Assembly (NCBI GenBank): GCA_003008705.1
Contig: PDUO01000003.1
Coordinates: forward strand, 1,620,793 to 1,684,792
Origin: Pezicula radicicola
Lineage: Eukaryota; Ascomycota; Leotiomycetes; Helotiales; Dermateaceae
Length of the DNA stretch: 64,000 nucleotides
Direction of reading: 5' to 3'
Below are positions 36,099 to 59,111 of the stretch, piece by piece (position 1 is the first letter of the stretch; each line of letters starts with the position of its first letter). The notes beneath the pieces are model-generated. The model had not been told where the DNA came from. It did no database searches and was given only the letters and a program-made list of their open reading frames with translations. Both the position numbers and the translations under genes were made by a program.

Positions 36099-36509
36099 TC
36101 ACTTCTTCCCCGACTTGGCAAAAGTTTTGTCGAAGTCGTCAAGGTAGTTCTTCATGTTGTTTTCGTGGGCTTTAACGCTGTCTTCTTTTTTGTGGTGTTG
36201 GAAGCGCGGGTTCGAAGAGGTTGAGTCTTGGGTGTAGGTCGTAAGAGGGGTTGTGGAGTGGGTGGATGTTGAATGGGTATGGGTAGGGGTTTGGGTTTNG
36301 GTTTGGGAGTCGGCACTAGGAAGATAGAGATGTGGTCAGACAGAAGTACATGGGCAAGAAGGCGCAGGATGAGAAATGCATGATGAGAAGGGCAGGCTGA
36401 GAAGGGCAGGCAGAGTATTCATCTTTGCTAAGAAGAGTGATAGAACGTACGCATCGTGAGAAGTTACTGAGCCGTAGTTTGCTTTGGTGGAGGATGTGCT
36501 GGATGCCAT
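36099..36509 (-). CDS. small-family copy A, 91 aa
   Basis: Two exons, 36451-36509 and 36099-36315, joined by a 135-bp phase-2 intron. Exon 1 encodes MASSTSSTKANYGSVTSHD, the family N-terminus. Exon 2 begins with a Thr/Pro/His-rich stretch (THTHSTSTHSTT) and ends in TYTQDSTSSNPRF, then KKEDSVKAHENNMKNYLDDF-DKTF, the family C-terminal helix. No signal peptide, Cys or membrane segment. One base is unknown (n at 36299), affecting one codon in the Thr-rich stretch. I do not recognise the family; function unknown. This is the leftmost copy of the array and has the most divergent, low-complexity middle. Confidence 0.75.
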
Positions 36510-36768
36510 CTTGAAGAGTGTTGTGAGGTGAGGAATAGTGAGGCAGGTATGGCAAGCTAGATATAGTGTGTCGAAGAGGTATGGTGAGGTATAGATGGTA
36601 GGTATGATGACGGAGAACGGTGCACTTGGATGTGTTGACGCAGCACGGTACGGTATGGTACGGGAACAGTACACGTGAAGATGCTCTTGGGCTTGGACGA
36701 GTTGCTTGAAGAATTGGGTACGGGTACTGATTATCATTCTACACTTGTGAAGAGTGGTGGGCATGGCA

Positions 36769-36777
36769 CTTCTTATA
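36769..36777 (-). promoter_or_regulatory. TATAAGAAG box upstream of copy A
   Basis: On the minus strand the sequence reads TATAAGAAG, followed by GTGCCATGCCCACCAC, 260 bases before the ATG of copy A. The same box, followed by ACCATGCCCATCACC, precedes copy B1, so the promoter was probably duplicated with the gene. Confidence 0.5.
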
Positions 36778-38392
36778 CCATTTGCTCGAGAGTGTGAACG
36801 ATTCGATTCGCCTGCAGAAATAATAATTCTTACCGTCACCTTTGCAAGACTCGAGGAATATTTGCCTTTCTTTCATACTGAGTACTTAGTGGAGTGAGCT
36901 ACACTGGTTGCCTTAATGCGCGAACCACCAAATTCGTGGTAATCCTTCGAAGAGGGAACACCCACGCCGAGATCTCGTATGTAAGCCTCCCTAGCCTTTG
37001 TGTCCTCTCTAGAGATTCCCCGTCCTTTGGGAAAGCTGGGGGGTGGTGACGTGACAGCGGGCGTCCTTGCCCTAGGCAAGGATTGGGCAGCCAGCAGCGA
37101 GTAAGAAGTTGAGACGCACCAATTATCCTGGCTTCGTTAACAGTTCAGCGCAGCCTTATTGGCCTTGAACGTGGCTCATAGGGTAGCTCGCATGCTTAGA
37201 ATGCTACCGTAGAGAGAGCACGGCCTCTGCGGAATCATTCCCCAGTGCCCGTTCCCCGTTCCTCGTTGACCGGGGTTTCCAACTATCCCCTCCCTAAATA
37301 AAGGTTATATTTTTGGCTGGTGGCAGGGCAAGCTGATGATGCATGGACCTTTAACGGATGATATCCGGGAAAAAACGAACTGCACTTGTAAACCACAAAA
37401 CTCAGGTTGTGGGCGCAGAACTCCTATTATTGTAGAGGGAAAAGATGTGGAGATTTGCCTTATGACACAAAAGGTAGATAAAGGGCAATTTCTTACGTGC
37501 GAAGTTGGAAGGGTACAGTAATCAGTAATACTGTTTTTTTTTTATAAAATATATATATATATATAATAAAAAATATAAAAAGACGTGAAGCGGCTGACAG
37601 ATCTCTTGGGCTTCGAGTCGATCTAGAAGCTAGTGACAGGAAAGGAAATTACGAAAGTCAATAACTTATCCACTACGAGTTGGGCGCCTTGTCTACTTAC
37701 TGCATTGGATACTTTCAGCATTAGGGTAGGCGCCATCCTTGTCGTCGGCTTCTTAGCGCCGGAAGTGCCATCTTTTCTCTGACCATATGCAGCCATAATT
37801 CAGGTGTTCAGGGTTGCGTGTAATACCGTTGCAACGTCTTCTGGGACCTTCTTACTGCTCGGCCGCGCGCTTCTCTGCTCTGCTTTGGGACATCGTGTTT
37901 CGGTCCAAGGTGAAATTTCAACACTTGGTTCCTCCTATTGCAATGACCTACTCCTCCTCTCCTCCGTCCTGCTCCGTTCCAACTTTTACCTCAACGTCAC
38001 GTACAAGGTACAAAATCTAGAGCATATCGTACTGCTTTTGCCCATTTTCTGGTCACGCTCATGACCGGAATGCGGGGTCCAGATCCCCGATCAAATATCA
38101 CGGCTCAGATGTACAGTAAAGTGCCTCGAGACAAACCCCATTGCCTTTCCGTGTGCCAAGTCTCGGCCACCAGAGGTGCCATTGACCTATACACTATACA
38201 GGGGATTCTGTCAGAAGTGACATTCTTTATCCATTGTCATTATTACTCCCCAGTGCAGGCGCCGGTAAAATAACCGTTGTCGCCCAACGTCAATTTGTGG
38301 CTGGTGGACTGGTGTTGCCTCCTGCATTATCTCCCACTTCCGATGGCAGCTGTCGCCTTATTACCTTGAAGCAAACTTTCCTTGTTCCATTT

Positions 38393-38452
38393 CTTGCAAC
38401 ACATTTCCTTGCAACACATTTCCTTGCAACATATTTCCTTGCAACACATTTT
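38393..38452. repeat. 15-bp tandem repeat, four units
   Basis: Four adjacent units of cttgcaacacatttc, the third with a c-to-t change and the fourth ending in t. Confidence 0.9.
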
Positions 38453-40390
38453 CCTTTTGGCACATTTTCCTTATTCCATTTTCCTCTGTCGCCTTATTAC
38501 CTCGTAGCACCTTGCATTTCCTCTCCGCTGTATCGATGATTAGCACATGAATCTCCGATACTTGGTCGAGCTGATCGCCCAAAAGGCCCCAAACCTGGCA
38601 GATGCCTCACGAGACCGTATCGCGCATAGTAAGCTGTATGATTTCGAATGAATCACTCTCAGAAAGTAACAAGTAGAAGATGTATCAAGCCACTGAATAC
38701 GCATCCCTGTAACTTTCAAAGTTACTGATGAGCGACAGGTACTTAGAGCAATCTATAGAGACATTCTTAGGCCTCGCTCCCAGTCGTATCTAGGTGCTGT
38801 AGCACTTTCTTAGAGGAAGAGAATGTCCTTTGCGAAAACTCCTAACCGAATCAAAAAGCCTATTAACATGAATACTTATTACCGACTCTTTAATTTATTA
38901 TATTGCATTCCTACCTTTGCTTCAGAACTTGTACGAAGCCAACGATGACCTGGATAGAAAATCCGTTGTTTAAACGCCGCATATTGTCCTACTGCGGGCG
39001 AGGCGCCGCTGAGGAAGTTTTGAGCAGGAGGTGTTCTTTCTGCCTCGCCATCGCGATGTGATCACGGTGTGTGCGCTATGTTCGCCTTTGTCAGGTCGTA
39101 CTCGGACCAGCAGAAATAATAGCATGGGTTGTTTCTGTTTGTGCATTTGACTGGTAGGAGTGGAAGGTGAAGGGTCGAAGGAATGTCTTGTGAGTTGGCG
39201 GCGTCGCGCGGGGCTGTGGTCGGTGTAGAAGACGCCCTCCGTCGTCGCTGGCTGCAGGGCCTTCTCCCACATTACCGGTGGCTTATTTATGGACTTACGC
39301 CGGACTTCGTACCTGCCAATGATCACTTGTTGGTTTCTTGGATCCCTTAGCCGGTAGTGCCCTCCCTCGGAGTAAGGCCGCCTACCCGTCAAAATCGCGC
39401 ATTCGGCATGTAATAATGTACGGAGTGGTCAGAGCCAGTCTGACGGTGACAAACCCGAGAAAATTATCATATCCAAACCGCATGCATCGTTTCTTAAGCC
39501 TGTACCAGGCGCACAAGCTCACTCATTCCTCATTGTTGATACCATTATTGCAAGTGGTAGCCTCTCACGCGTAGTACACGCATTCTGCAAAAGAATATTT
39601 ATTACTTCTTCATTCGGATCTTGGATACATTGTTGAGTTTTGCAAAGTTGCGTCGCGTATAATAATAAATAACTCTCTCGTCTAAATACGAGTAGTAAAC
39701 AATAGTCCTAAGTATTCGCAATTGTATTCCTGCGAAACAATTATTACCTAGTTGATCGTCGTATAGCTCATAAACTTGCATTTTTAACTGCAGCCCTTAC
39801 CTGTATCTACTATTATTTCCTTACTTTTATTAATCGAGGGCGTGGCGCGAAAGGAGGCCAATATAGAACAAAGTTTTTTCTATATATTCCTGGAGGCTAC
39901 GCTATTAAGTATATAATAGCTTTTCAGGACAAAGGAGTGTCAATGTTCAGAGTGGAGATATATGGAAAATATCAACGCGATGTCGTTTATATTAATTATT
40001 AGCGAGTACTACTTCACAAAGCCAAGCATGGAATGCGACCAGGCAAAAACCTTTTATTTTATAAACTCTCAACTATTTTCTAAGTCTCTAGCTTTACTAC
40101 AATCTCTCTGTGATTCTTAAATCTCATTGTTTAAGGGGCCACATTTACTTAGCGCGTTAGCGAAGACAGTTACTCGCCAATTCCATATTATCAACAGGAA
40201 GATCTTTAGGCCGCTCATCTTCTACTGTTACAGAACTAGCTACTTTCAGGTAGATATTTCTGATATCTTCATTATTAATGTTATTGATTATGCCTAAAGT
40301 TTTTAGCGTCTGATTAGACTTACTACTTCCTCGTGTACTAAGTACTTATTCTTGCTATACTTCAAAGCCATTTCGCAGCAGTACTTAAGT

Positions 40391-40756
40391 TCACTTATAG
40401 AAACTCTGGTCGAAGTCGAGAAGGTCATTTTGGATCTTAGTTATGTGGGCTTGGATGATTTGTTTAGTGGGCGAGGACAAGTATGGTGATTCCTCGGGGA
40501 TTGAATTGATGGGGTCTTGGGCATAACGGTTGATTCTATGTGTGGAGTCATTGGTAGTTGAGGAGTGTTGACTTTGGCTACTGTGGATATTGGGTTAGCA
40601 TTCGCAGAATGAAGGGTACTCGTTGAATAATATATACCTATTGGCCGATCCATTTGCTGAGACATCGGTAGCGACGACGCTTTCCGAGAAGTTCACCACG
40701 GCCGATGAAGGATGATCTTCAGTGCTAGAGGAAGAGTCAGCCTATGATGACGACAT
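40391..40756 (-). pseudogene. small-family copy B2, damaged at its 5' end
   Basis: Exon 2 (40391-40580) is open and in family register: SQHSSTTNDSTHRINRYAQD, then IPEESPYLSS, KQIIQAHITKIQNDLLDFD. A 57-bp intron (40581-40637) with a GCTAAC branch site joins it in phase 2 to an upstream stretch ending VSANGSANR, which resembles the family exon 1 end (A-x-x-G-S). The only in-frame ATG upstream (40754-40756) is followed by a stop after four codons; the nearer ATG is in another frame. The copy therefore lacks a usable start as read here, unless an unseen first exon exists. It sits 17 bases beyond the stop of copy B1. Confidence 0.6.
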
Positions 40757-40772
40757 GAGTCTCTATGCACAC

Positions 40773-41128
40773 TCACATCTCACAACCAGCCATTGCCTCA
40801 TCGAATTCCTGTAGGTGTCTCTGTAGTCGGGCCGTGTGCATATGGATACTGTCTTCGATAGAGGACTGTTGGTTTCGGTGGCTTGGCACGGCTTTGTCTT
40901 GGATGTAGGAGTTTATGCGCTCCGTAGAGTGGTCAACAGTTGGTGACGAGAGATTATTATTGTTTCTGCGGTTAAATATATGATTAATGGGGGATCTTAA
41001 AAGGTGGGTAGAGGATTTAAGAGAGACAGAGAGAGAAGGATATAGAGAAAGAGTAATTCAACATACATCTCGATATCAGACGAAGTAGAGCTATAGTTCG
41101 CATGTGTTGAGGATGTAATAGATGGCAT
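40773..41128 (-). CDS. small-family copy B1, 84 aa
   Basis: Exons 41067-41128 and 40773-40965, intron 101 bp, phase 2. Exon 1: MPSITSSTHANYSSTSSDIE. Exon 2: PTVDHSTERINSYIQDKA, then SSIEDSIHMHTARLQRHLQE and FDEAM. All family positions are present: ERI-x-x-Y, S-I-x-x-H, L-x-x-F-D. No signal peptide or membrane segment. Immediately followed by the damaged copy B2 in the same orientation, a tandem pair. Function unknown. Confidence 0.78.
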
Positions 41129-41312
41129 TTTGAGGTACTATAAGGCGAGGTATGATACGTTATGATAAAGTATAAAAAGATGGGCTAGAAAGAAAATATA
41201 TAAGGAATAGTCTACACGGTAGAGTTCTTGTAGTTCGCTTTAGAAATTGGTACAAAGTACGGTAACGCGAGTAAACTTGTCCTTTTGCATAACTACAGGT
41301 GATGGGCATGGT

Positions 41313-41321
41313 CTTCTTATA
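41313..41321 (-). promoter_or_regulatory. TATAAGAAG box upstream of copy B1
   Basis: Minus-strand TATAAGAAG, 185 bases before the ATG, followed by ACCATGCCCATCACC. Same box and similar flank as copy A. Confidence 0.5.
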
Positions 41322-41889
41322 ATCAGGTCGTGAGCAGTACGTGTAGTCGCAGTGGAAAAAAAATGGCACGCAGATGCAATTACTTCCTTGCCTATTTCCT
41401 TTTACATTGTCCGACATGGGTCGAAGAGTAACGTTCGACGCAAGTACTTAGATCGCGACGCAAATAGGTTCCTGAATATCCCAGTATTTGATCCCGAGAC
41501 GACAGCCAGCAAAGAGAGGGGGCAAGAGGCTGTCAGAGCGAAGCATGGACGCAAAAAGCGGCTTTGACAGGCAGGGACAGCGATGGCCGCCAGATTGGCA
41601 CGCCGCGGGCTAGAAATCCTGGGTTATTGCCGTATGGTTCCTAAACACCCTAGTATTTGACGCCGCGGCTAGAAATCCTGGATCGCTAAAGGCAGTATGT
41701 ACATACAAGTACTTCACCCCTGTGAATTATCTGGCCAACCTGCTACACACCACACTCCACCACTAGCGCCATTGTTCGTCCTGCATCATGGGTCCTGAGC
41801 AAGCAGGTCGGTACGGGGAAGAAGAACAATACGCAACGTTTGACCTGGCGCGTAAGGATAGCGGGTGCCACCCCGCTGTCACGCTTGCT

Positions 41890-42144
41890 CCATCTGTAGC
41901 TCAGATTCTCAATCAATTACTGTAGAGCCGTCCGACCCGAGCTCCAATGCATGGTTATTGGAGCGGGCTAGCTCAAATTCGGTTAATCATCTCCAATAGA
42001 CGGGCCATTGGATCTTGCAATCTACGGCTATCGCTCGGGCCATCTGTGTTCAGGTTCTCAATCAATTAGAGGCGTCCGACCCGAGCTCCAATGCATGGTT
42101 ATTGGAGCGGGCTAGCTCAAATTCAGTTAATCAATCTCTAATAT
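41890..42144. repeat. direct repeat of ~105 bp, spaced by 150 bp
   Basis: 41890-41995 and 42040-42144 align from ccatctgt through aattc(g/a)gttaatca, with near identity over ccgacccgagctccaatgca and the following bases. Each unit contains gctccaat...attggagc, an 8-bp inverted repeat able to form a hairpin. Confidence 0.8.
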
Positions 42145-42666
42145 TACTGTGGTCGGCATTTCGTGGTTGTGAGATGGGTCCGACGATGTGCCCGTATGCT
42201 CTACGATTAGCTATTCACCATACCTCAAGATTGTCCCGACTCCCTCACGCCTCTAACTGTTTATGATGCATTATTTCCCTTGTACTTATTTCCTGCCTAT
42301 CCTAACTTCTATATTTTCTAGCATTAACAGTTCCAGGGGCATAACCTCTGTGGCCCTACTTTCGGTACTCGTACGGAGTAACTTAGTAAAAATTCCAAAA
42401 ATTCCAAAATGGACCGCCTACACTACACCCTACGTACCAGCGACACCATTGTACCAATTTCTCTTCTTTCGTCGCTGCACCGAATGCACCCGTGGTAACG
42501 TTCGCCATATGGGGACAATGTACTGTGCTTCCGGAGTCCATAGTTGCGTTCAGATATGAAAGCGGAAAGCCCCTTCACGATGCAGGTTCAGCATGTTAAT
42601 TGTCACCCGTGTCCAGAACTTCCCAAACCGTATCATTACCGGTAATCGTTCCGGAACCGATAGTAA

Positions 42667-42963
42667 TCATGATTGAGGACTTTCTTTTCTTTTTGGACTC
42701 TGGTCTGTAATTGGTTGCTGGCCTCCGAATCTGAAATATCGAATGATTCTTTCCATTCTATAGCTAGAGGTGTGGCGTAGGGTAAGGCACCACCGTTTTT
42801 GACCGTTTACTTCTTTCATCACTATAGTACAGTATGCAATAGCAGCGGGGTTGACCCAAAAAGGTGCCGGCGGCAGGCAGGGATCTTTCGCAGCTAAGGA
42901 TGGCTGCATGACCAGCATGACTTCATTTATACGCCGTTCGCTAATAAACGAGTACTCGAACAC
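42667..42963 (-). pseudogene. possible diverged small-family relic (copy I)
   Basis: A minus-strand frame ends SSYRMERIIRYFRFGGQQ followed by SPKRKESPQS and a stop. The ER-I-x-x-Y spacing fits the family core, the E-S near the end could match the E-x-S-I part, and the C-terminal helix is missing. On the upstream side a box TATGAGAAG at about 43091 sits in the same relative place as TATAAGAAG in intact copies. Each clue is weak alone. Confidence 0.3.
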
Positions 42964-44292
42964 CCGTACGAAAGAACCTACCGCGCATTATAAACTGAAT
43001 GGTGAAGGAGAACAGTGACGCGATGTTCTGTTTAGGTGCAGGTTGCGTAGCTCTATGTTTTAGGTTCAGGAGAGCGATGGAGTATGATACTTCTCATACT
43101 ATTTCCTTGAGAGGTTACAAGGGTGAAATGTTAATAATTTACTGCCTACCGGAATCACAATACTTACGGTGACAACACAACCTTTGCAAAGACCAGCATA
43201 AAAGACCATATATACAAGTCGGTAAACAGCTAGGTCATGCGCACAGGGTACGGCGACAAATTGGTGCGCATACATGTGAAGATTAGATGATATATTGGAA
43301 GCCCTATCAGCTTTTCACAAGCTCCAAGACTCACTTGCGAGAGGTGAAAAATATAGGTAGTTTGGATTTTAGTGGCGAACATTTCGTACAGTGAGGTTCT
43401 TGATGAAAGGCTGAAGGATATTTCACAGTTTAATTTTAAGTGGCGAATGTTTGATAAGTCTCTCTGCTGTTTCTACAGTATGTTCCGCATCCGGTTAGGT
43501 TTGAGAGCTGAAAACACGCACCCCAGCACCTACGAAGCGCAATTTTTGGTCTTGTCCGTATGGACCTGTACAAGATACATGGGTTTATTAATATCCTTAT
43601 TGTTTCCGTACACTTGAATATGCGGAACACTTAGTTTAAGAGAGAAGGATTAACTAGTAGGCTGGATTACTTAGTGAACGAATTAGCTCGCTTATCACCT
43701 CAGCTATTATTTACTACAATGACAGTTATTCAGCTTAGATATTTTTGAAATCAGCACAAACTGGGAATCGATGTTTATGACGTCAGATGAAAACGATTGT
43801 AATGCTATGCTTCTCATAGCGCAACTATAATTTTAACAAGATTGCAAGAGAACCACTACGACTCGCTTGCGGCAACAAACTCTTTTGGCCAGTAACTGCG
43901 TTATCAGATCAAACCTCCGGCATGCTGTTACTCCCAGCTATTCTCAACAACACATTGAGGGACCGAAAAAAAGAAATAGGAGGCTCATGCCAGTAGCGGT
44001 ACAATAAACACCAGAAGGTCTATTCTATATCGAAATTGTTGCCCAGAACGATCCCTCACTTCGTTGCCAGGGAGGCCAACCTATCTTCGACAACATGCCA
44101 TCGAATGAAACTCCAAGAAAAGGTGCTGGACCTGAGAGCTATAACTGAAGAAACAAGCAGCTGTCCTCGCCTGACGTTAAACCTTCTAGAACCATTTGCA
44201 GAATCCCCAGTCCCTATTTGCATTAGCATTTTAACTTTGCCATGTACCCGTCCTCACAGCACTTACGATCATTGTTTTGTTTTCCTTGAAGC
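42964..44292. other. intergenic region, no supported gene
   Basis: Short motif-free frames only. The stretch 43085-43200 resembles the upstream region of copy A (shared acctttgcaaagac), suggesting an old duplicated promoter segment. Confidence 0.4.
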
Positions 44293-44806
44293 TCACTTCT
44301 TGTAGAATTTCTTGTTGAAGCTATCGATGTGGGTTTTGGCTTTCGCCTTGTGAGCTAGGACACTTTCTACGATGGATGTATTGCGATATTCAGGGTTCGG
44401 ATTGGTGGACTCTTTGACGTAGTTTTTGATGCCAATAGTGCTGTTGCCAGTAGCACTGGGTAAAAAGTTGATAGTGTCTCGAGATGGCGGCGAGTTTGCC
44501 GGGGAATATGTAAAGTGGCTATAGCTGATGAAATTAGCTGGCTTCACCACTACTAGCCAAGTACTAGGGTCGCTCTAGTAGGACCATCAAATGTAGTCCC
44601 AATTTTAAGCGAAGCGACTAGGATCGTCGAGTGCTGGTACCTTCCAGTAAAACTTGACCGGGGGTAGCCGCTGGGATCTGAGTGGTTTTCCATGTAAGCT
44701 GCAGGATGCGGTCAGCACGAAGCATAACAGCAGAATAATTATCGCTTAGCACACCTTGTCACTACTATGCCTTCTTGATCCCTGTGAGCCTTTAACGTCC
44801 GGCAGG
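44293..44806 (-). pseudogene. small-family copy C, exon 2 intact, exon 1 without a start codon
   Basis: Exon 2 (44293-44524) is open: GIKNYVKESTNPNPEYRN, then SIVESVLAHKAKAKTHID and SFNKKFYKK before the stop, a clear family C-terminus. Upstream, GTAGTGACAAG followed by the donor gtgtgct at 44755/44754 is nearly identical to the exon 1 end of copy E (CTGTGACAAG, gtgtgtt), so exon 1 can be placed at about 44755-44806; but its frame (TLKAHRDQEGIVVTR) has no ATG in the expected place. The intron would be 230 bp, the longest in the family. Either a pseudogene or a gene with an unseen start. Confidence 0.6.
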
Positions 44807-45677
44807 ATGCGTAAAAGTACACAGATGACACACCCTTAGGCATTGGCTTACCAAAAATTTATAGCTCCTTCGTAGCGAGAACTTCTCCCACATTTCACTT
44901 ATTAGCCATATACCATGATCTATTGGCTTACTTGGTTTCCAAGGTAGACTAGCTGCCTGTCACAGCCAGCTTATAGTTCACCACCACGAAAGCCAATACC
45001 TTTTAACCGCAAAACGGCCCCTATATACAAGGACACACATTGGTGATATAGGTACACAATTCTCTCCAAAACTTTACGAGGTCCCAAATGCATCATCAAC
45101 TATGTAAGAGCGCAAGATCCTTAATCAGAATACCAAAAAGTCTTTAGGGCATAAAACTTTGTGCTACCGAACTTGAAAAGTTCGTATATTTCGGAGTATT
45201 CAATTAACTAGGGTTCATACTGGGTATCAAAGAGTAAGTGTGTCACTCGGCCACTGTTGTGCATCAACAAAAACTTGTCAGATATTCTTACCTGGATCTC
45301 CAAAATTTTCACCAAGAACAGAGCACTATAAAATGTCGATTAAATGACTTCATTACTTGAATCAAGTTACCTTCCTTATGTCGGCCGTAAATTGTTCTAG
45401 AACCCTCAACAATCTCTACCTTCTAGACAGTTGCTGCTTCGATACAACCTGCCAGTCACATCAATGGCTTATAATGTGCACACATATCTCCAAACTTTTT
45501 GATCATAACATGTATACCCGCAGTTTTCTCAACCACCGTACATATCAAAGAACTTCTATTTCTTGTTTTCTCAGTCCCTGTTCGAGTTTTATGAATGTCC
45601 GTACACTTACCATCTGTTTTCCAGTGTACTCGCTTGTTCCTATTCAATTACAAAACTCGTCGAACAAGCTATTGTTC
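44807..45677. other. intergenic region, no supported gene
   Basis: Upstream side of copy C and 3' flank of copy D. Nothing recognisable on either strand. Confidence 0.45.
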
Positions 45678-46001
45678 TCACTTATCCTTTTTCATAGCAT
45701 TGTCGAAGTTGTTAAGATATTCCTGCATCTTGATCGTGTGTACTTGAACATTTTCTTTCGAAGTGTACTGGTGTTTTAACTGTGGATTGGAAGGGGTTGG
45801 GTCTTTGAGGTAAGTGCTAATGCGTTCGGTAGAGTTGTCGACGGATGTGTGAGAGCGATATTCATTACTGGATACACTATTAGTACAGATTGGGAACTAT
45901 GGATCTATGATAACTTAGCGAGGAATCGGGAGGACTTACATCGTGTCAGGGCCGGCCACAGAGCCTTTGTTGGCTGTTGTAGAGGATATGCTAGACGGCA
46001 T
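45678..46001 (-). CDS. small-family copy D, 83 aa
   Basis: Exons 45940-46001 and 45678-45867, intron 72 bp, phase 2. Exon 1: MPSSISSTTANKGSVAGPDT. Exon 2: SVDNSTERISTYLKDPTPSN, then KENVQVHTIKMQEYLNNFD and AMKKDK. A compact, complete copy and the best reference for the family layout: a short Ser/Thr-rich head, ER-I-S-T-Y core, Pro/Asn linker and a charged C-terminal helix. No signal peptide. Function unknown. Confidence 0.8.
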
Positions 46002-47976: not shown

Positions 47977-48368
47977 CTACTTGTTATAGTTTGGCATACT
48001 CTTGTCGAAGTCCTCAAGGAAGTGCTGCATCTTGGCGGTATGGGCATATATGCTCTCTTCAACGGAGTCGTGTTTGTATGCAGGGTTTGGGTCGACCTCT
48101 TCTTTAACGTAGTTTGTGATGCGCTGCTTCGAGACGACTTTGTAGTCAAGCTTTAAGTCGGCTTTCGAGGTTTTCTTGGAAGAGCTGGCACGGGAAGCAT
48201 ATGATAAGTAAGCACTTTATCTTTGCCTCTCCAGAATACTAGTGCTTAAGAAACCAAGCCGGGGATGATTAATGAAGTCTACCGCAACGGTAAATGACCA
48301 AATATTTCAACACACCTTGTCACAGAGCCATGAGTTGCTCGAGCAGAAACGGTAGAAGTGGGAGGCAT
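47977..48368 (-). CDS. small-family copy E, 86 aa
   Basis: Exons 48316-48368 and 47977-48184, intron 131 bp, phase 2, donor gtgtgt. Exon 1: MPPTSTVSARATHGSVT. Exon 2: SSKKTSKADLKLDY, then SKQRITNYVKEEVDPNPAY, KHDSVEESIYAHTAKMQHFL and EDFDKSM. The C-terminus is the clearest version of the family helix: S-V-E-E-S-I-x-A-H-x-x-K-M-x-x-F-L-x-D-F-D. The middle is Lys-rich, unlike copies B1 and D. No signal peptide. Function unknown. Confidence 0.8.
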
Positions 48369-48789
48369 AGTAGGTTGGGAGGAATGATAAGGATGGCTGC
48401 GTGATGAATTACAAATACGCGTAAAATAGATGATGCCTAGGGTATTGGAATTGGCATGCAACAAAGGGGTTTTGCATTTATTTCAGTTCTTAAATCGAAG
48501 GTTTGAGAGCACTGCACTATCCTGGAGCGCATAACATTTCTTATATGTTGTCAGTGAACAACTTGACAGAAAGTCAAGTTGGCTGCCTCACCAAGCCAAC
48601 ATCCATTTAGGACTTTCTCTTTTCCATTCAGTAACCCCGTGTTAAAGGACATAATGTGATAATTCCATGCAATGGTACGACACTCGTAAGATAGTTGAGA
48701 GAATGCGCCTGATTTTGATTGGCTTTTCTGACATCATGGGGGACACTGTCGCTTCTCCCCACGCCAAGCCATCCATAAAAAGCATCATC
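48369..48789. other. upstream region of copy E
   Basis: No gene seen; contains the TATA-like box listed above. Confidence 0.4.
48537..48545 (-). promoter_or_regulatory. TATAAGAAA box upstream of copy E
   Basis: Minus-strand TATAAGAAA (one mismatch to the box of copies A, B1 and D), 169 bases before the ATG. Confidence 0.4.
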
Positions 48790-49240
48790 GCACATACCCG
48801 GATTTGCCTCCTCGGCTTTGAAGTTGAAGAACTTGGTCTAGATTTTGGAGTTCATGTCAGGTGTAAGGCTGACAGAGAACTGTGGCACAACTGGATCCTT
48901 CAGGTAAACGGCCATACCTTTCAGCCACAGGGTCTTTGGTGGTCGAGGCCCAGACCAGAGTCCAGACCGTTTGGCTCGTAAACATTGCTTCGTGTGACCT
49001 GGAAGCGGGGATAACGCCGGGGCGAGCCTCCCGTACAACACCACTGATATTCTGAACAGGCGCGTATGAAAAGTTGTCGGTACCCTGTGGGTTTAGCAAA
49101 CTTATTTCCGCGCCTACAGTCTTCCCTCCAGCACCCAGAGTTGGTAACACAATACGGTACCTATGCGACTTCTTAATTTCGATATGACGCGGAGTTAGAT
49201 GCCAATTATCTTTACACCCATCACTTTCTTGGAAGTCATG
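48790..49240 (-). pseudogene. possible eroded small-family relic (copy H)
   Basis: Minus strand: KGMAVYLKDPVVPQFS resembles the QRITNYVKE..PNP core of copy E; after a gap DMNSKI, a TAG (CAG would give Gln) and TKFFNFKAEEANP resemble A-H-T-A-K-M-Q-x-F-L-x-D-F-D. A short ATG frame at the upstream end (MTSKKVMGVK, near 49240) could be the remains of exon 1. Stops and missing segments mean it is not functional if real. The alignment was made by eye. Confidence 0.32.
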
Positions 49241-49467
49241 ATTCCATCTTCACGGCGGCCTTGAGAATGTGCTGGCGAGATGAGAACTCGATCATGTAGT
49301 TTCTGTGTCCCGAGTGCTGACGAATAATAGCCTTATGAACGGCGGATCTGTCATCATAACCATAGCCTTGCAGTTCTGTCTTCAGATGTTTCCTTTTATT
49401 GTGTTAGCCTTGCGGTCATGAATGCGAGTAAACGTCGGACTGACCATCTACCCCACTTTATTGTCGC

Positions 49468-49872
49468 TTAATTGTATGCCATTTTATCGTCGAATTCTTG
49501 AAGAACGGTCTTCGCTTGGGTGATATGGCTTTGGATACTCTCTTCTGTATTGGAGTGTTCATACGTGGGGTTTGAATCGGTTTTATCATCGATGTAGGTG
49601 GATATCCGTTGTGTGGAGTCACTTCTGTGAGAATCGGAGTTGGAAGAAGAGGTTACATTGTCTTGCGAATATTTTGTTTTCAAATTTGCTTTCGTATATG
49701 AGCTATGACTATACAAAATTAGCGTTGAAAGAAAAATAGCACACCTTCCTCAGAGCAACAGAGGATTGCTTGGCCTTCCCTTAAGAACACGACCCAGCCC
49801 ACAACGTCTTCTTACGTACCTCTTTATCGACCCATGAGTGGCTTTTGTAGATGTGGTAGAGTTGGGAGACAT
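49468..49872 (-). CDS. small-family copy F, 97 aa
   Basis: Exons 49820-49872 and 49468-49708, intron 111 bp, phase 2, donor gtacgt. Exon 1: MSPNSTTSTKATHGSIK. Exon 2: SYTKANLKTKYSQDN, a Ser-rich stretch, then RSDSTQRISTYIDDKTDSN, NTEESIQSHITQAKTVLQ and EFDDKMAYN. The family residues ER/QR-I-x-x-Y, E-E-S-I-x-x-H and F-D are present; M of the K-M pair is replaced by K. The intron holds a second exon-1-like end (49745-49775), see findings. A TATATAAAG box lies 164 bases upstream. Function unknown. Confidence 0.8.
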
Positions 49873-52800
49873 TTTATATCCAACCTGAAGATACGTGGGG
49901 AAGAAAACAAGTCTCTAGTTGGGTGCTGCAATTCATGAAATAAGGTTACGATGAATATGCCAGTGTTTGACCTCTCGTTCTTCAAGAAAATTTTCTTACA
50001 TTAATCAAACTAGAAAGCTGATGGTTGCCAACAGACTTTATATAGAATAGGCAAGGTCGGCTGAAACTGAGCATTGCTGCTAGTGGTTTAAGTACTGCTG
50101 GACTTCGAGGGTTGCAATTCCTCTATTCTACAACACCTACATACTTTTCCCAAAAGGATTGCAGGGTTAAAAAGCTCGTGCTGTTTGTTGACAGGGGTCG
50201 ATGGACAAGTCCCAGTACCATCATATATACCCTGATTCCGTCTTGAGATTTGGGTCGTTCTATTGGAGCATGGGGTTTGGAGTTCTGCGCCCAACTGTCA
50301 GTAAACACTGTCTTTGGAATTGGTACTTTCTACAGGGCGGTGCGACTCGCACCATGCGAGCCTGCCAGCCTATGAACTTACTTACGGGACCTAACAGGTC
50401 GGTGACCGATCACAAAGGCCCTGACACCCTTGCGGCCCACAATCCTGGTGGAGCAATCACAATCACTAAGCTAGGAGCGCAAGCTACGCCATCAAGTAAA
50501 GCAACCAGGGAACCCCCCAGCTACAGGTAGTAGTGTCCCGCAACGCGGCAACTCTGTGCATCACTGACGTCCGACCAATTTGAGAAACAGCGTGTGTGGT
50601 TCAGGCCACGCCGAGTACCACACTTGGGAGAACGGAGGGGGTAGAATTGGTGTGCTTGAATCCTGCTTTGCTGGCTACTTGCTGTGTCAGAAGAAGGTTA
50701 GCGTGCCAGCTGGCAGCAGTCTTATTTAAGCGAGTAACTGAGTAGTCCAATTATTTGCTACATACCGTCGCAGCACGAAAGAACCATGTTTAAGCTTAAT
50801 TGTCAATGGCTCCATACGGACGAAATTTGATTGATCTAAGCGCTTGGAACACCTTTTTGACAGCCAATTAGACCCAAATCGCACTTTTCTGGATAATAAT
50901 TCGTCAACTACCCTGCCATACAACCCCGCACCTACCGCTTGGTCTGCACGCCACTATGTCCGAAAATCAAATCTTCAGAGGAAAAGTCTCCTTGTGCCTC
51001 TCGGCATCACCGTGCATCCGTAAAGGCCGACCAAATAGCAAGAAGGGCATAAGGTCGGGAAAACAAAAACTGTTTGTTTCACGCCAACTTTTCATGCAAG
51101 GAGTTGTAGAAATGACATGTGATTCAGAGCCTCACCTACTCGCCCGACTACTCTGTACGAGAGGGAGAAGTTTACGATGGACTCGGTTTTCGCCGGAACA
51201 CTGTGACAGCCGTTTATGTGCGAAAATCCATAATATGTCTCGTACTCGTACGCTTATGATTCAACAAACCACATATTGCCTTGCCGATTTTTGCATCACT
51301 AAGGGGGCACAAGGCTATTACCAAGAATAACGGCCACTACATTGACAATCTTTCCTGAGCCCTGTTAGATGGCATGCACCATACCCTGTGTTCATACTAC
51401 AACAATCTTGCGTTTGTTTAACTTTTCGGGTGAAATACTCTATTGGTGTGTTTCTTTATTACGATATGTACTCCAAGCTATTCCAAGGTTGACTCTTCAA
51501 TATTTGCAATTTGAAATGCAGTCGAATAATTCTGCCGATGACTTTATTCAAGTCGACTGTACGAATTAAATGCTGCAAAGTTCTTACAGAGTACACCTTG
51601 CTTCGTTTGGAATTAGAAATACTAGAAAATAAACGATAGGCATTATAGCAACTAATTAACCATCTTGTCAGGAATTGCTTAGTAATCATGGAAACAGTAG
51701 AATGCTTGGCATTAGTCTTTATATGGTGTAGCAACCCCACATCTGAATAGCTTCATCAATTCAATCAGTTCTTTATCTATTTATAACACATCTAAAACTA
51801 GATGCGTCTATAACCATCCCTAAATCGTTCTCAACTATGCCTGGAAGTCAAAACGCAAAGCAAGTGGTTGCACGTGACGACCAATCTTGAGCAGAATCAC
51901 GTGATCATACTTACATGATAAGTACTTGTGGTTCTGTGCTCAAATTAAAGATCGGTATATTCCATGTATTCCTAAATGTGAACCAATGTCAGGAAAACTA
52001 CTTGATGAACTTGAAATTTACAGGGGTTTGTCTTGGCACGAGACGGCATGTATGATTTCCATTGTAGAACGGACTTAACCAAGCCAATGAGAATTCTATA
52101 ATTAAGAGAGAAGCTCTCTAGATTCTTTATTCTAATAGATTGTAAATAACTGCCTTTTCAAGATGGGATGAAGTTTACAATAGTTTTGCTACATCTGATT
52201 AATTATTACAATATCCAGTCACATGAAAACTGTAAAGTTATTAAAGGTATACAAAACAAATGCATACTAAGATTTGACTTACTACAGCACTTGATAATCA
52301 TTTGAACGAAGCCTTATACGAAAATGACCGTAATTCATCTGCGGGACGAACCGTCGCTAAGGCCGAGGTGATATCCTAAAGAAGCAGCAGCGGCAAAAGA
52401 GTTTCCAAGTTTCTCGCTTATCTTGATATTGAAGCTTCTTCCAACGACCGTTGATACCAACCTTCATCACGCAATTACTAATCTTTTGTTTGGCCCCTAT
52501 TCTCAATTTTTATAGAGAAGCTTCTCAGTTCTCCTGCTTCTTTAATTTCATAGGTGTAGTTCCACAGTCTTAGCAAAGCATCAACCATTCCGCTTCTCTA
52601 CTGCTCCTGCATCTGCCAAGCAACTCCCTCCTCTGCCCTTTCTCCCTTTAAACTCTAATAGTATGCATACACCTAGCTTCCGATTAGGTATTTGAAGTTC
52701 ACCTGTTTGCCTGGGACATTATATGGAGGCTGGCTTTAAGATCTAAGAAGCATATCCACACGCCATCGAGTCTGACCAAACAGCAATACTTAGTCCACTA

Positions 52801-54526
52801 TGTGCCGACCACCAGCCGTCCAACTTATTGCAAACTACGAAAAGTCATCTCTTTGCACATTTAGTATGACGAAGTCATAATTGGAGAAGTTTTTCTCTCT
52901 CGCTATTATTGAATGTGTGTAAGATCATTAGCACCTTCACATCCAAAGGCTTCAGCATATCATTAAAAATGAACAATATCCTCTAAGTTAATTTTAGTCA
53001 AAAGCAGAAACATATCCCGTGCACTCTCCTTGACTCTTGGACTTCTGTATTGGAAGAAATTTGTCTAATTCAGCCGAATTTATTCCAGGCCTGTTGCAGT
53101 AATATCTGATGCCAATAAAGGCAAAATGTTAGCCTACCTAAACTTTGCTTTTCCTTCCACACACTAACGCTTTATGTAATGAGAACAGTGGTTTCCAAAC
53201 CGTTGGAGAATATGGTTTTGTCTCGTAGAGTCGGCAAAATGGGAATATTGGGATCAAGTCTACATCAACTACTCTTGTCTTCCGACCGATAGCGCCATAA
53301 TCTCATCCCCTGGAAACTCCGAATGCACTATTTTGCTACTAAGGGTGTTCGTAGATAGAAGCTATTCAAGATTATTAGCGAATATTTTTCTACAGAGCGA
53401 TCGAGACCACCATCAGCTTCGGAATGAGTCGTCTTCGCCATAGATAAGAACGTCCGATCCAATCATCAACAACTACTATATTACTACCCACTGAAAGTTA
53501 CAGCACCACCTTGATCCTCTCCCTAGCGTGGTTCGACAATCGTGGTGTGTTTTCACGGGCTTGTTCCGAACAAGGAGAACCTGAGTCAGTCTATCATCCA
53601 CAGTAGTGGTACTTACTAAATATTTTTGCCATTTTGACATACGGCTTCGTAAAGTTCGTTATGCCGAACACCCCTCTTAGATCTACTGTGCAAACAACGG
53701 TATTCGTGCAAGCGGTTGTTACGGCAGAAGTCAGTCGCCACTACCGGCATACATATAGCGGGAAGGTCTCCACTTTTATACGGGGATCTTTTGTAGCGGT
53801 TAATCTTCCCATATGCACGTCATTTATTCTGACCCTCTCTAAAATTCTGTGATCCGCGCTTGTGTATAGCGGTGAGTGATAAGAATTCTACAGTAATGAG
53901 AGAAGTATATACTAAATTATATAGAAACTTAACAAAATATATATGATAAATCGGTATTGCAAGCCCCTTGAACGACCTGCAATGTATACCAAGGGCTTTG
54001 TGCCGCTCGATACGTTGTGCAGACATGACTCGTGTTAATTGAAGAGATAATGACATAATAGATAGTGGATCTGCTTTTAGATGTGCTTGAAGGTATGGTC
54101 GCTCCTCGGTAGACAAAAAGGGCCGCAACAAACAAATCGCTCTAAGAAAGTACAGCATTTTGACGAAACACCTACTTCGCAACTTCGCAAGCGATTTTTT
54201 AATATCTCTGATTACCCATATTTTCTTTTTAATTGCGGAATTCTTTTGACTCCGGCTGCGGGCGTGAGCTTTTGGTCTTTCAAGCCTGCTTATTTTCAAA
54301 TAATCGACCGAAATAGTGGTGGCATCCGGTGTTTTTTGGCCACCGAGGGTGGTTTTTTGTAATCGGCCTAGTCATTAATATTATATATATGGTTCGATAT
54401 GCTAGGTTATTGTTCGATTTCTTCTTCTTACACAAGACTCAGTGCTCTCTCTTGTACCGCAATTCAATTTTCTGTAACCTCAAGCTACTGTATCTCTAGA
54501 TACTCCGCAGTCGAACTTCACCAGCG
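49873..54526. other. 4.6-kb gene-poor stretch before the A-T-R reductase
   Basis: The first ~200 bases are the upstream region of copy F. Frames of up to 159 codons (minus, 53820-54299) and 124 codons (plus, 50956-51330) are present but show no motif or codon pattern I trust. 51.8-53.5 kb is AT-rich and stop-rich. The final 150 bases are pyrimidine-rich, suiting a 5' UTR. Confidence 0.5.
50036..50044 (-). promoter_or_regulatory. TATATAAAG box upstream of copy F
   Basis: Minus-strand TATATAAAG, 164 bases before the ATG; position matches the TATA-like boxes of copies B1, D and E (169-186 bases). Confidence 0.4.
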
Positions 54527-57500
54527 ATGGATTACCAACTCAAGAAATTTACTTTAGATCCCAAAATTCCCTACGGGCAGCGCTTGCTCCCAACTGTCGT
54601 TGATGAAATCGCCAAAGAAAACCCGGACCGCGTTGTTTGCAAGATTCAAAAAACGGTCGATGTACGGAAGGGATTTTTGCACATCACCATAGGACAAGTT
54701 GCAAAGGCGGTCGATTACATGTCATACTGGCTTGAGAATCAGCTCAAGAAGAACAATGGCCAACAATCAACAATTTCCTACATGGGCTCTGCCGACATCA
54801 GATATTGGATTATGATTTTGGCGGCTATCAAGATCGGATCACCTGTGGGTACAACGATCAAATTTCAAATGTCTAACAAGGCTGATTTGTATGTAGATTG
54901 TTCTCCCATCTTTGAAAAACTCTGTTCCAAACAACGAATCGCTTTACAATGCTACCAAATGCCGCACTCTTTTCTACAGCTCGACCAACGTACACAGAGC
55001 AACTGATCTTGCATTTGTTATGAACAATGAATTACAAACTTCAGAAATCCCAACATGGGACGATATGATCACCCAGAACCCGAAACCCTACCCGTACACC
55101 GATACCTGGGAAACAGCGGCTAAAAAACCGATCCTGGTCTTGCATACCTCCGGGTCTACAGGAAATCCAAAGCCTATCACATACAACCATGCATTTGTGA
55201 ACACCATTGACACCGCAAGATTGGTCCCGGCTGTTGGTGGGCAAGAGCCATTATCCCCCGCCATTCTTGAGCAAGAGCCTGGTTCGGAATTTTACCTTGG
55301 ATTTCCGTTCTTCCACTTGGGTGGCCTAGCATTCTTCTTCCTACCTATATGGTATAATACCGTTATGGTGCTTGGACCAACAGAAGTTCCTGCCAACGGT
55401 AAGGCTCTTATCGATCTCATGAAGCACAACAAGTTGACTACTATCGCGAGTCCACCGAGTTTGCTAGAAGATATTGCGAAAGAATACATAGATGAGTTTG
55501 AGAAGTATTGCGGACACACAAAGATTATTATTTACGGAGGAGGCCCACTTGCACCATTCGCTGGTGACTACTTTTCGAAGCATATCCCCGTGATGGCGCA
55601 AGTCATGGGTTCCACTGAATCCGGGTTTCTTCCGTTAGTTTCTAAGTCACCAGAAGAGTGGCAATGGCTTTACTTCCACCCGATGATTGGTGGATTGCAC
55701 TTCGAGCAAGATGAGGACCAACCCGACCTCTACGAGTTAATTATCAAGCGCAGCCCAGGTCAGGAATGGATTCAAGGAGTTTTCCAGACCTTTCCAGAAC
55801 TGAACATATGGCGTACGAAAGACCACTACAGACGTCATCCAACCAAAGAGCATTACTGGTGCTTTGTAGGTCGTGTAGATGATATTCTTGTTCTTTCCAA
55901 TGGAGAGAAATTTAATCCTGTGGGTATGGAAACTTCAATTGCTCAGCATCCTGCTGTCAAATCCATAATAGTTGTGGGACAAGCACGTTTCCAATGCGCC
56001 ATGATCATCGAACTAAAAGACAGTGTACAATGCGATCCAACTATCATCAGTGATATATGGCCCGTCATTGAGAAGGCGAATATGAATGCTCCTGCCCATG
56101 CGCAGATTGATAAAGATCTAGTCATCCTCGCCGATCCAAAGAAGCCTTTCCAGCGTGCTTCGAAGGGTACCGTCCAACGCTGGAAGGTTAATAAAGACTA
56201 TGCTGCTGAGGTAGATGCTTTGTACGAAACCTTTGCAAGTAGGGCTCCAGGGAACAGTATTGAGTTTGAGCTATCTTCCGCTACGGATGAGTCTGCAGTG
56301 CACAAGTTCTTGGAAGACATTGTTAGCCAAGTTTTGCCTGGGAAACCGATCAAGGACACAGACGACTTCTTCGTTCTCGGATTAGATTCCCTCCAAACGT
56401 CTCAACTATCCAACAGTATTAACAGAACTCTAAAGGGACACCTCGAGGCTAGCAAAAATATCTCCACCAGATTTATTTACGAGAACCCATCCATTCGCCA
56501 GCTCAAGACTGCTATTCTCGCCCTCACAACGGGTACTTCTGCAGGCACTTCTGAGGATATTGAGGATCAGATGCGTGCTATAGTAGAGAAGTGTACCTCT
56601 CATCTCCCAGCCAAGGTTGCCTCCAGGCCTAACGCCAATGGCAAATTGAATGTGGCACTCACCGGAAGCACTGGTTCTCTCGGTTTCTACATCATCCTTG
56701 CCCTGCTCGCCAACCCCAAGTTCGACCAGATCTACTGTCTCGACCGCTCGCCCGCCGCCGAGACGAAATTCGCTGAGCGTTGGGCAGTTTTAGGAGAAGA
56801 GCATTTGACTCCCGCACCAGGAAGGCTGCACTTCTATCAAGCAGAGTTCGGCCACCCTACATTTGGTCTTCCCGATGCAGACTACTCTGAACTTTCCAAC
56901 AATGTTAATGCTATAATTCACAACGCTTGGAAGGTCAACTTCAACCATCCACTTAGCAGTTTCAGCAGCCAGATCGATGGTGTCGAGGCGTTCACTCACT
57001 TATCACTAACCAGTCCTCTACATCCAACCTTCTACTTTGTCTCCTCCATTTCATCCGCTGGCTCTTATCCTAGTATTATCCCAGAACAAATTCTTACAGA
57101 CTACTCAGTTCCATCACCCATGGGGTATGGACGTTCCAAGTATGTCTCTGAGCGTGTCATGGACGTCGCAGCCCGCAAAGCTGGTGCCAACATGACTGTA
57201 TTCCGTGTAGGACAAATTGGTGGTCCAGTCCTGAATGGACTGAAGGGTCAATGGAATTTACAGGAGTGGTTCCCTTCCCTGGTCAAGACCTCTGGGGAGC
57301 TTGGTATTATGCCTGATACCCTTGGAGCCATGGACAACATCGAGTGGATTCCCGTCGATGTCTTAGGTCGTGTTATGGTTGAACTCATTCAGATCCCACC
57401 AAATAACCCAAAAGTTGAGGGCGCAAGGGTTTACAACTTTGTGAATCCCCATTTAGCTTCGTGGAAGAATTTGATTCCTTCAATTCAAGCCTATTATGCT

Positions 57501-57758
57501 GCTAAGGGAAAGGAAATTAAGGTCGTGACATTCCAGGAGTGGCTAGCGAAGATTTCTGAGCTTGGGGAGGATGAGCTCACGCTTGAGAAGTTCCCGTCTA
57601 AGAAGATTCAGGATTTCTTTGAGAGTATCAGTCAGGAGAATGGTATGGGTGGTGGGTTTGAGACAGATCGTTCAGTGAAGGATTCTGAGACTATGAAAAC
57701 TCTTCCGCCCGTTGGGAAGGAATGGATTGAACTTTGGTTAAGTCAGTGGGCTTATTAG
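54527..57758 (+). CDS. A-T-R adenylate-forming reductase (NRPS-like), 1059 aa
   Basis: Two exons, 54527-54844 and 54897-57758, with a 52-bp phase-0 intron holding a CTAAC branch site. Domains: adenylation (about 20-530) with the P-loop-like core LHTSGSTGNPKP (residues 188-199), MGSTESGFLP, WRTKDHY, GRVDDILVLSNGEKFNP and KGTVQRWKV; carrier (T) domain with FFVLGLDSLQTS, Ser at about 604 for phosphopantetheine; thioester reductase with VALTGSTGSLG (nucleotide binding, about 693-702), YGRSKYVSERV (Tyr850, Lys854) and FRVGQIGG. The enzyme would activate a carboxylic acid with ATP, load it on the carrier and release it as an aldehyde or alcohol using NADPH. There is no condensation domain. Cytosolic. 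Substrate not predictable by eye. It stands alone, without an obvious cluster. Confidence 0.93.
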
Positions 57759-58681
57759 TTCTCTCATTTGTATGATACTTCCCAACTACATCGAGCGTAG
57801 TGGCCGACAAGGTACTGCTAAGCGAGTGCGCAAAACATCAACTACATTAAGTCAGTGGCCTGTTTGTAAATCCTTGTACAGGCCAACAATCCCTACCTAA
57901 TTCTAGTTATTTTATCAATGTAGAACTTAGTAACCACGATTTATTGAAAGTAGTTAGGTATGTGTACTTTGGTTATAAAGGTATTGAAAAGCATACCTAG
58001 GTATATATACACACAAGCGATACCACACGTGACTGTAACTATTAGAACAAGCCCTTACTAAGTGCTTGTAGGCCGATGAGCATGCACTTCTTATTTTGTA
58101 TCATTTTGTAAGGTATATAAGTCGGAGGATCATATACCAACACCGAATTGTCTTAAGGTTGGTACCGTATAAAAAATAATTCTCTGGCATTGGCTTCGAC
58201 GCGTTAGCTAATTTAACGTCACATTAGCCAAAGTGATGTCTGTCTCGTCCACTCCTTTATATAAGCTAATAAGGCATTACATTGGTCTACACGACGCGTC
58301 ACAGTAGCCAAAGTGAATGGCGAACGCGTCTGAACAACGCGCTAAATAAAAATGTACTTAGGTACGCGACACAGCCTTCACAGTTCTCAATAAAAAACCA
58401 ATCATCCATAAGGAAATGTCAAATTGTTTACTTTCCAAAAGGGGAAAGGTCCCTAAGACTTAATACACCAGTAGTAATTGATATTGTAACTGTCCAAAGT
58501 CTCGGGGATATGCCTTCGCATTTGCTTTCGATATTTCATACAGGAACTAAATTCAAATTTGGTTCTTCCGTAGACCAAGAACACGCCTAAGCTTCAACGC
58601 CTATTCGAATTAATATGTTAACTAGTCTGTTCTAAACTTCATGTACAGAATAGACTAACCCTCGCGTTCTCCCAGCATGGC
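57759..58681. other. intergenic region, no supported gene
   Basis: 3' flanks of two convergent genes. A ~25-bp word (cgtcaca(t/g)tagccaaagtga) occurs twice, near 58217 and 58298. A 102-codon frame (58282-58590) has no recognisable feature. Confidence 0.45.
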
Positions 58682-59111
58682 TTATCCCTCTCGACAAATG
58701 TTTTCGTTTTCTCCCCAGCGAGTCCTGTCGATGTTGATGTTGTTGAGACTTCTTTTCATCTCTGCGATATGTTCAATGATGCTCTCTTTTACAGCAAAGT
58801 ATCGGTATGTAGGGATCTCGTTCGTTTTGTTCTTGGTGAAAGAATATTCGAAGTGAGAGGAGATAGGTTGAGATTTGTCGTACGACTTGAGGTTCGAGGC
58901 AGTGAGTGGCGACGAAGGCATTTTCAAACTATTAGATATACGTGAGCTTTTCCATAGTCGTCAATGTTGAGTACTCTGAAGCGGTGTAATTTGGCCTTGT
59001 TTCCAAAATAGGTCCAGTGGGTAGGAAAGTTGAAGAAAGGGATGCCAGATCTACTTACGAATGTGCTGAGCCAGTTGCTGCTCTGGCCGAAGACGTATTG
59101 AAAGGGGGCAT
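58682..59111 (-). CDS. small-family copy G, 99 aa, diverged
   Basis: Exons 59059-59111 and 58682-58928, intron 130 bp, phase 2. Exon 1: MPPFNTSSARAATGSAHS, close to copy E (MPPTSTVSARATHGSVT). Exon 2: PSSPLTASNLKSYDKSQPI, FEYSFTKNKTNEIPTYRY, then AVKESIIEHIAEMKRSLNNI and a unique tail RTRWGENENICREG. The E-S-I-I-E-H-x-x-x-M-K part of the family helix is kept; ERI has been lost and the terminal F-D is replaced. It lies about 9 kb from its nearest sister, beyond the A-T-R reductase gene. Confidence 0.7.

What the first reader, a model, noticed from the sequence alone, without database searches (positions are those of the whole stretch)
36099..59111. Unrecognised family of ~90-residue proteins expanded in one array, all on one strand
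Six intact two-exon genes (A, B1, D, E, F, G), two damaged copies (B2, C) and two possible relics (H, I) share the same structure: a 17-20 codon first exon beginning M-(P/S/A)-x-(S/T)... and ending near G-S, a phase-2 intron, and a second exon with ER-I-x-x-Y, an N-P linker and a helix S-x-E-x-S-I-x-x-H-x-x-K-M-x-x-x-L-x-x-F-D. They lie in about 23 kb, always minus strand, while non-family genes are nearly absent until the A-T-R reductase. I know no named family with this motif. The middle segments vary widely (Thr/His-rich in A, Lys-rich in E, Ser-rich in F) while both ends are kept, suggesting a conserved C-terminal interaction helix and a free middle. Birth, divergence and death of copies are visible in one locus.
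Basis: partly seen in the sequence, partly recalled or inferred. Interest (0 to 1): 0.85.

Follow-up and report, generated by a model that had tools for sequence, protein, structure and literature searches.

The report
Unnamed small-protein gene array in fungus
A filamentous fungus carries, in one 23-kb stretch, eight divergent copies of a small protein of unknown function that matches no catalogued family searched here; selection has kept its tail helix, so it looks like a real but undescribed gene family.

Summary
The array is real. I find eight family units in seven genes, all on the minus strand (36099-59111), with nine GT-AG phase-2 introns. Held-out profiles recover all eight second exons (E 2.5e-16 to 3.6e-5; best unrelated ORF 0.15). 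Copies share 20-43% identity in the conserved block, yet pN<pS in 28 of 28 pairs. Four of seven genes keep a TATAAGAA box. No other copy was found within 100 kb, or in the 61-Mb genome with six protein queries. No significant Pfam or PDB match. One relative turned up among 5.8 billion proteins (E 2.3e-6).

Corrections: 'damaged' B2 is more likely the second module of a four-exon gene B, whose first-module stop lies inside a GTGAGT splice donor. I found no further relics.

Most likely: small intracellular proteins with a Ser/Thr-rich flexible front and a C-terminal amphipathic helix that docks to a partner or itself. The helix is predicted; its role is inferred. The family is undescribed in what I searched, but lineage-restricted tandem orphan families are a familiar kind.

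The parts
36099..36509 (-). Gene A: exon 1 36509-36451, intron 135 nt, exon 2 36315-36099; 91 aa, Thr/His-rich middle; one N at 36299
   Evidence: held-out profile E 9.9e-15 for exon 2, 0.049 for exon 1
40391..41128 (-). Gene B, two modules: exons 41128-41067, 40965-40777, 40724-40638, 40580-40391; 175 residues with three phase-2 introns (101, 52, 57 nt)
   Evidence: held-out E 2.9e-13 (B1) and 4.2e-10 (B2). Splicing between the modules is inferred
40771..40776 (-). GTGAGT donor that contains the B1 stop codon TGA (40775-40773): unspliced gives the 84-aa single module, spliced the two-module form (inferred)
40742..40756 (-). ATG-like start of B2 followed by a stop at codon 5, 16 nt beyond the B1 stop; falls inside the proposed 52-nt intron
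44293..44693 (-). Gene D: proposed exon 1 44693-44641 (weak), intron 122 nt, exon 2 44518-44293 (intact); 92 aa.
   Evidence: exon 2 held-out E 5.2e-13; exon 1 not found by the held-out profile
45678..46001 (-). Gene E: exon 1 46001-45940, intron 72 nt, exon 2 45867-45678; 83 aa
   Evidence: E 3.8e-14
47977..48368 (-). Gene F: exon 1 48368-48316, intron 131 nt, exon 2 48184-47977; 86 aa, Lys-rich middle
   Evidence: E 3.3e-16; structure prediction of exon 2
49468..49872 (-). Gene G: exon 1 49872-49820, intron 111 nt, exon 2 49708-49468; 97 aa, Ser-rich middle
   Evidence: E 2.5e-16
58682..59111 (-). Gene H, most divergent: exon 1 59111-59059, intron 130 nt, exon 2 58928-58682; 99 aa
   Evidence: E 3.6e-5
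36770..36777 (-). TATAAGAA box, 268 bp upstream of the A start codon
41314..41321 (-). TATAAGAA box, 193 bp upstream of the B start codon
46188..46195 (-). TATAAGAA box, 194 bp upstream of the E start codon
48538..48545 (-). TATAAGAA box, 177 bp upstream of the F start codon

Best explanation
A genuine, selected, lineage-restricted gene family, spread by old tandem duplication of a whole transcription unit (TATA box, short first exon, phase-2 intron, second exon) in a filamentous ascomycete. Each unit encodes a small protein with a Ser/Thr-rich, probably disordered front and a C-terminal amphipathic helix of about 22 residues. The helix most likely acts as a docking or pairing surface, to a partner or to another family member, while the variable middle is a flexible spacer that diverged freely. 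In gene B two units lie in one transcript: splicing from a donor that overlaps the first stop codon would yield a two-helix protein, and leaving that intron in a one-helix protein. Shown: the family, the gene models, purifying selection, the shared promoter element in four genes. Predicted: the helix. Inferred: intracellular location, docking role, the two B forms.
For: Held-out recovery 8 of 8; nine of nine phase-2 GT-AG introns; pN<pS in 28 of 28 pairs, dN/dS 0.16-0.71 in the 17 pairs where it could be estimated and saturated in 11; block pN 0.42 against middle pN 0.62; DNA similarity gone outside coding sequence (two short matching pairs in 24 kb, one of them A against F coding DNA), so the open frames survived long divergence. 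TATAAGAA: 5 sites on the minus strand and 0 on the plus strand of the window, 4 of the 5 lying 177-268 bp upstream of A, B, E and F. AlphaFold2: helix 41-62. Hydrophobic moment above shuffles at p<0.05 in 7 of 9 sequences. An outside relative, P0001, aligns colinearly through both exons.
Against: No transcript seen. The alignment was made on protein, which lowers pN. Helix moment not significant in E (p 0.09) and H (p 0.14). AlphaFold2 had nine sequences, pTM 0.37, mean pLDDT 68. Splice sites were chosen by hand; first exons of D and B2 have no profile support. Two of nine introns lack a branch-site-like motif and that of H lies only 4 nt from the intron end. D and G have other TATA-like sites and H none within 400 bp.
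Confidence: 0.5

Rival explanations
1. A decaying array: one or two functional genes and several drifting pseudogenes, B2 and D among them.
For: The B2 start-like ATG meets a stop at codon 5; D's first exon is unsupported and H is very divergent.
Against: All eight second exons are open through the whole conserved block and pN<pS holds in every pair, those with B2, D and H included. B2 lies 16 nt from the B1 stop, and the two introns joining B1 to B2 carry GTGAGT/GTATAT donors, GCTGAC/GCTAAC branch-like motifs 13 and 15 nt from their ends, and AG.
Confidence: 0.2
2. Stress or spore proteins of the Con-6/hydrophilin sort: small soluble disordered proteins acting as chaperones or space-fillers rather than by docking.
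For: Small, 21-35% Ser+Thr, 0-1 Cys; several TATA promoters, which in fungi often mark inducible genes (recalled).
Against: No Pfam Con-6 match up to E 1; the genome's only Con-6-like match is on another contig and below cut-off. Gly 1-4%, below the >6% that defines hydrophilins (recalled).
Confidence: 0.2
3. Helical relatives of a known fold; the A1 profile put two TCTP (translationally controlled tumour protein) chains on top.
For: PDB profile search with A1: TCTP helical region, E 0.38 and 0.44.
Against: Not significant; the match disappears when the outside relative is added and only second exons are used (best hit is another protein, E 0.48); no Pfam match to TCTP.
Confidence: 0.03
4. Small secreted effectors or processed peptide precursors.
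For: Lineage-restricted tandem arrays are typical of such genes (recalled).
Against: The front is Ser/Thr-rich with no hydrophobic signal stretch by eye, and Cys is 0-1 per unit. No signal-peptide program was available.
Confidence: 0.05

Closest known systems
P0001, unnamed protein from a 964-base public contig
   Same: M-A-S-M-T-S-S-T-H-A-T-H-G-S front and S-I-E-D-S-I-Q-A-H-T-G-R-M-K-M-E-L-M-D-F-D tail, colinear through both exons
   Different: Longer middle; organism and expression unknown; no intron-like insert at the junction, so it is either a spliced transcript or an intronless gene
Con-6 (Pfam PF10346)
   Same: Small soluble fungal proteins with an N-P followed by a helix (recalled)
   Different: No profile match; no family unit is found by PF10346
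TCTP helical hairpin
   Same: Weak profile resemblance over Y-x-K and L-x-x-F-(D/N)
   Different: Not significant, lost with the extended alignment; no TCTP beta domain in these 83-99-residue units

Membership tests
Con-6 (PF10346) | Match to the Pfam profile | tested here: not met
   No match at E<=1 in six proteins or nine second-exon rows
Hydrophilins | Gly above 6% (definition recalled) | tested here: not met
   Gly 1-4% in nine sequences
TCTP | Significant profile match and beta domain | tested here: not met
   E 0.38 only, absent; units of 83-99 residues
Transposon-derived ORFs | Dispersed copies or transposase/integrase domains | tested here: not met
   No family copy outside the array with six protein queries (best candidates only, so a lower bound); no Pfam domain
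Secreted effector | Signal peptide | not testable with these tools
   No predictor; by eye no hydrophobic N-terminal stretch in the models
Lineage-restricted tandem orphan family | Clustered paralogues, no named homologues, purifying selection | tested here: met
   fungal proteomes could not be searched, so the breadth of the family is open

The most novel reading that the evidence does not exclude
The array is a set of paralogous helix-pairing proteins that combine with one another, with an invariant His on or next to the helix's hydrophobic face as a pH or metal switch, and with gene B making one-helix or two-helix forms through a stop codon hidden in a splice donor, so that the locus sets the valency of the assembly.
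Probability: 0.1. Interest if true: 0.6.

Novelty: new member of a known kind. Interest (0 to 1): 0.38.

Why it matters
It adds a clean, selected protein family with no match in the family and structure libraries searched, compact enough to study whole: eight units in 23 kb that keep both ends and a shared promoter element while the middle diverges. Gene B offers a simple test of how a neighbouring copy whose own start meets a stop can be taken into the gene beside it by splicing. Units this short may also slip below the length at which repeat-induced point mutation acts in such fungi (recalled; not tested).

Tried and rejected
Con-6: profile search of the own genome gave one sub-threshold match on another contig (E 0.0043, 23.5 bits); rejected. 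TCTP: lead, checked, rejected. Off-array hits of the genome searches (C109 E 0.023, C108 E 5.6, C124 E 2.05): the family profile gives no match up to E 50 in the C109 and C124 loci and E 3.3 in the C108 locus; treated as chance. A third protein search with second exons only found nothing up to E 10 and did not recover P0001 either, probably because of its length limit. tRNA and Rfam scans of the window were empty. FastTree of nine units: supports 0.23-0.84, so the order of duplication is unresolved; B2 groups with P0001 (0.805) rather than with B1. Paper searches: 0 papers; 5 listed; 4 listed; 76 papers, 8 listed; listings only, none opened, none describes this family as far as the listings show; that is weak evidence of absence from print.

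Full report
What is there. Eight copies of one small protein module lie between 36099 and 59111, 8 of 8 on the minus strand. I read them as seven genes: A, B (modules B1 and B2), D, E, F, G and H. In these hand-made models all nine introns are GT-AG and phase 2; a branch-site-like motif lies in the last 70 nt of seven of nine, though in H it is only 4 nt from the end.

Is it more than chance. Building the profile from seven copies and searching for the eighth among 10857 ORFs of 264 kb recovered every second exon (E 2.5e-16 to 3.6e-5); the best unrelated ORF over the eight runs had E 0.15. First exons are too short to carry the case: E 0.049 to 41 in six, 550 in B2, not found in D. Support for the two-exon layout comes from outside: a profile of window copies only finds P0001 among 5.8 billion proteins (E 2.3e-6), and the match is colinear from the M-A-S-M-T-S-S-T front to the L-M-D-F-D tail.

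How far it extends. The 9-row profile finds no other unit in 100 kb on either side, and a stop-tolerant scan finds no extra relic in the window (nothing outside the units above 5.6 bits; reversed-sequence control 7.0). Six protein queries against the 61-Mb genome returned the array; the only hits elsewhere, one at E 0.023 and two above 2, are not supported by the family profile. The tool scores only its best candidates, so very distant copies could be missed. The host is a filamentous ascomycete by a MAT alpha-box match (E 4.3e-31) and at least 168 fungal-rhodopsin matches; that these mark ascomycetes is recalled.

Selection. Pairwise amino-acid identity in the conserved block is 20-43%. pN is below pS in 28 of 28 pairs (means 0.42 and 0.71); dN/dS is 0.16-0.71 in 17 pairs and cannot be estimated in 11 because silent sites are saturated. 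Before the block pN rises to 0.62 with pS 0.73. Alignment on protein biases pN downward, so the contrast between block and middle matters more than the absolute values. At the DNA level the copies no longer match: in 24 kb compared with itself only two pairs passed E 0.01, a local duplication at 41882-42143 and a 33-base stretch of A and F coding sequence. The duplications are therefore old.

Promoters. TATAAGAA occurs five times on the minus strand of the window and never on the plus strand; four of the five lie 268, 193, 194 and 177 bp upstream of the A, B, E and F start codons. In the 264 kb both strands together hold 21. The word was chosen after seeing it, so I give no p-value. D and G have other TATA-like words at -170 and -172; H has none within 400 bp.

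Gene B. The B1 stop TGA (40775-40773) sits inside GTGAGT (40776-40771). Sixteen nucleotides further is an ATG with a stop at its fifth codon, which is presumably why B2 looked damaged. If the 52-nt intron 40776-40725 is removed, the frame runs on through an exon of 87 nt, a 57-nt intron with GCTAAC 15 nt from its end, and the intact B2 second exon, giving 175 residues. Sixteen nucleotides leave no room for a promoter, so B2 is probably transcribed with B1. B1 and B2 are 33% identical, within the range of separate genes, and do not group together (weak support): more likely two old neighbours joined than a recent internal duplication. All of this needs RNA-seq.

What the protein looks like. AlphaFold2 on the F second exon with nine rows gives a short helix at 20-23 and a helix at 41-62 with block pLDDT 88-90; the rest is low (mean 68, pTM 0.37). 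The helix is amphipathic: the moment exceeds shuffles at p<0.05 in 7 of 9, not in E and H. Mean hydrophobicity peaks at spacings of 7, 4, 3 and 4 (helix positions 5, 12, 16, 19, 23); the invariant His lies three residues after the first peak, which would put it on or next to the same face (inferred). Ser+Thr make 21-35%, Cys 0-1, Gly 1-4%.

What it is not. No Pfam family reaches its cut-off (best E 0.023); no PDB chain is significant. A TCTP lead at E 0.38 vanished with the extended alignment. Con-6 and hydrophilin definitions are not met.

Judgement. That the family is real and selected I hold at about 0.95. The docking-helix mechanism is an inference, at 0.5. The family has no name in the libraries searched, but fungal proteomes were out of reach and tandem orphan families are common, hence moderate interest.

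Noticed in passing
51666-51788: Short dispersed repeat: 35 of the 40 rows listed (40 of 58 candidates scored) match this stretch, mostly a core of about 50 bases near 51712-51761, at 84-96% identity across the genome. No tRNA or Rfam match.
   Followed up: partly
41882-42143: Two adjacent copies of about 115 bases, 87% identical, in the gap between B and D.
   Followed up: no
41490-41599: About 110 bases 98% identical to a place on contig C81.
   Followed up: no
54500-57758: Adenylation-carrier-reductase gene on the plus strand between G and H: AMP-binding, PP-binding and NAD_binding_4 domains; no sign that it belongs to the family.
   Followed up: partly
16211-16957: Fungal-rhodopsin-domain match over the Pfam cut-off with five stops inside, probably introns.
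   Followed up: no
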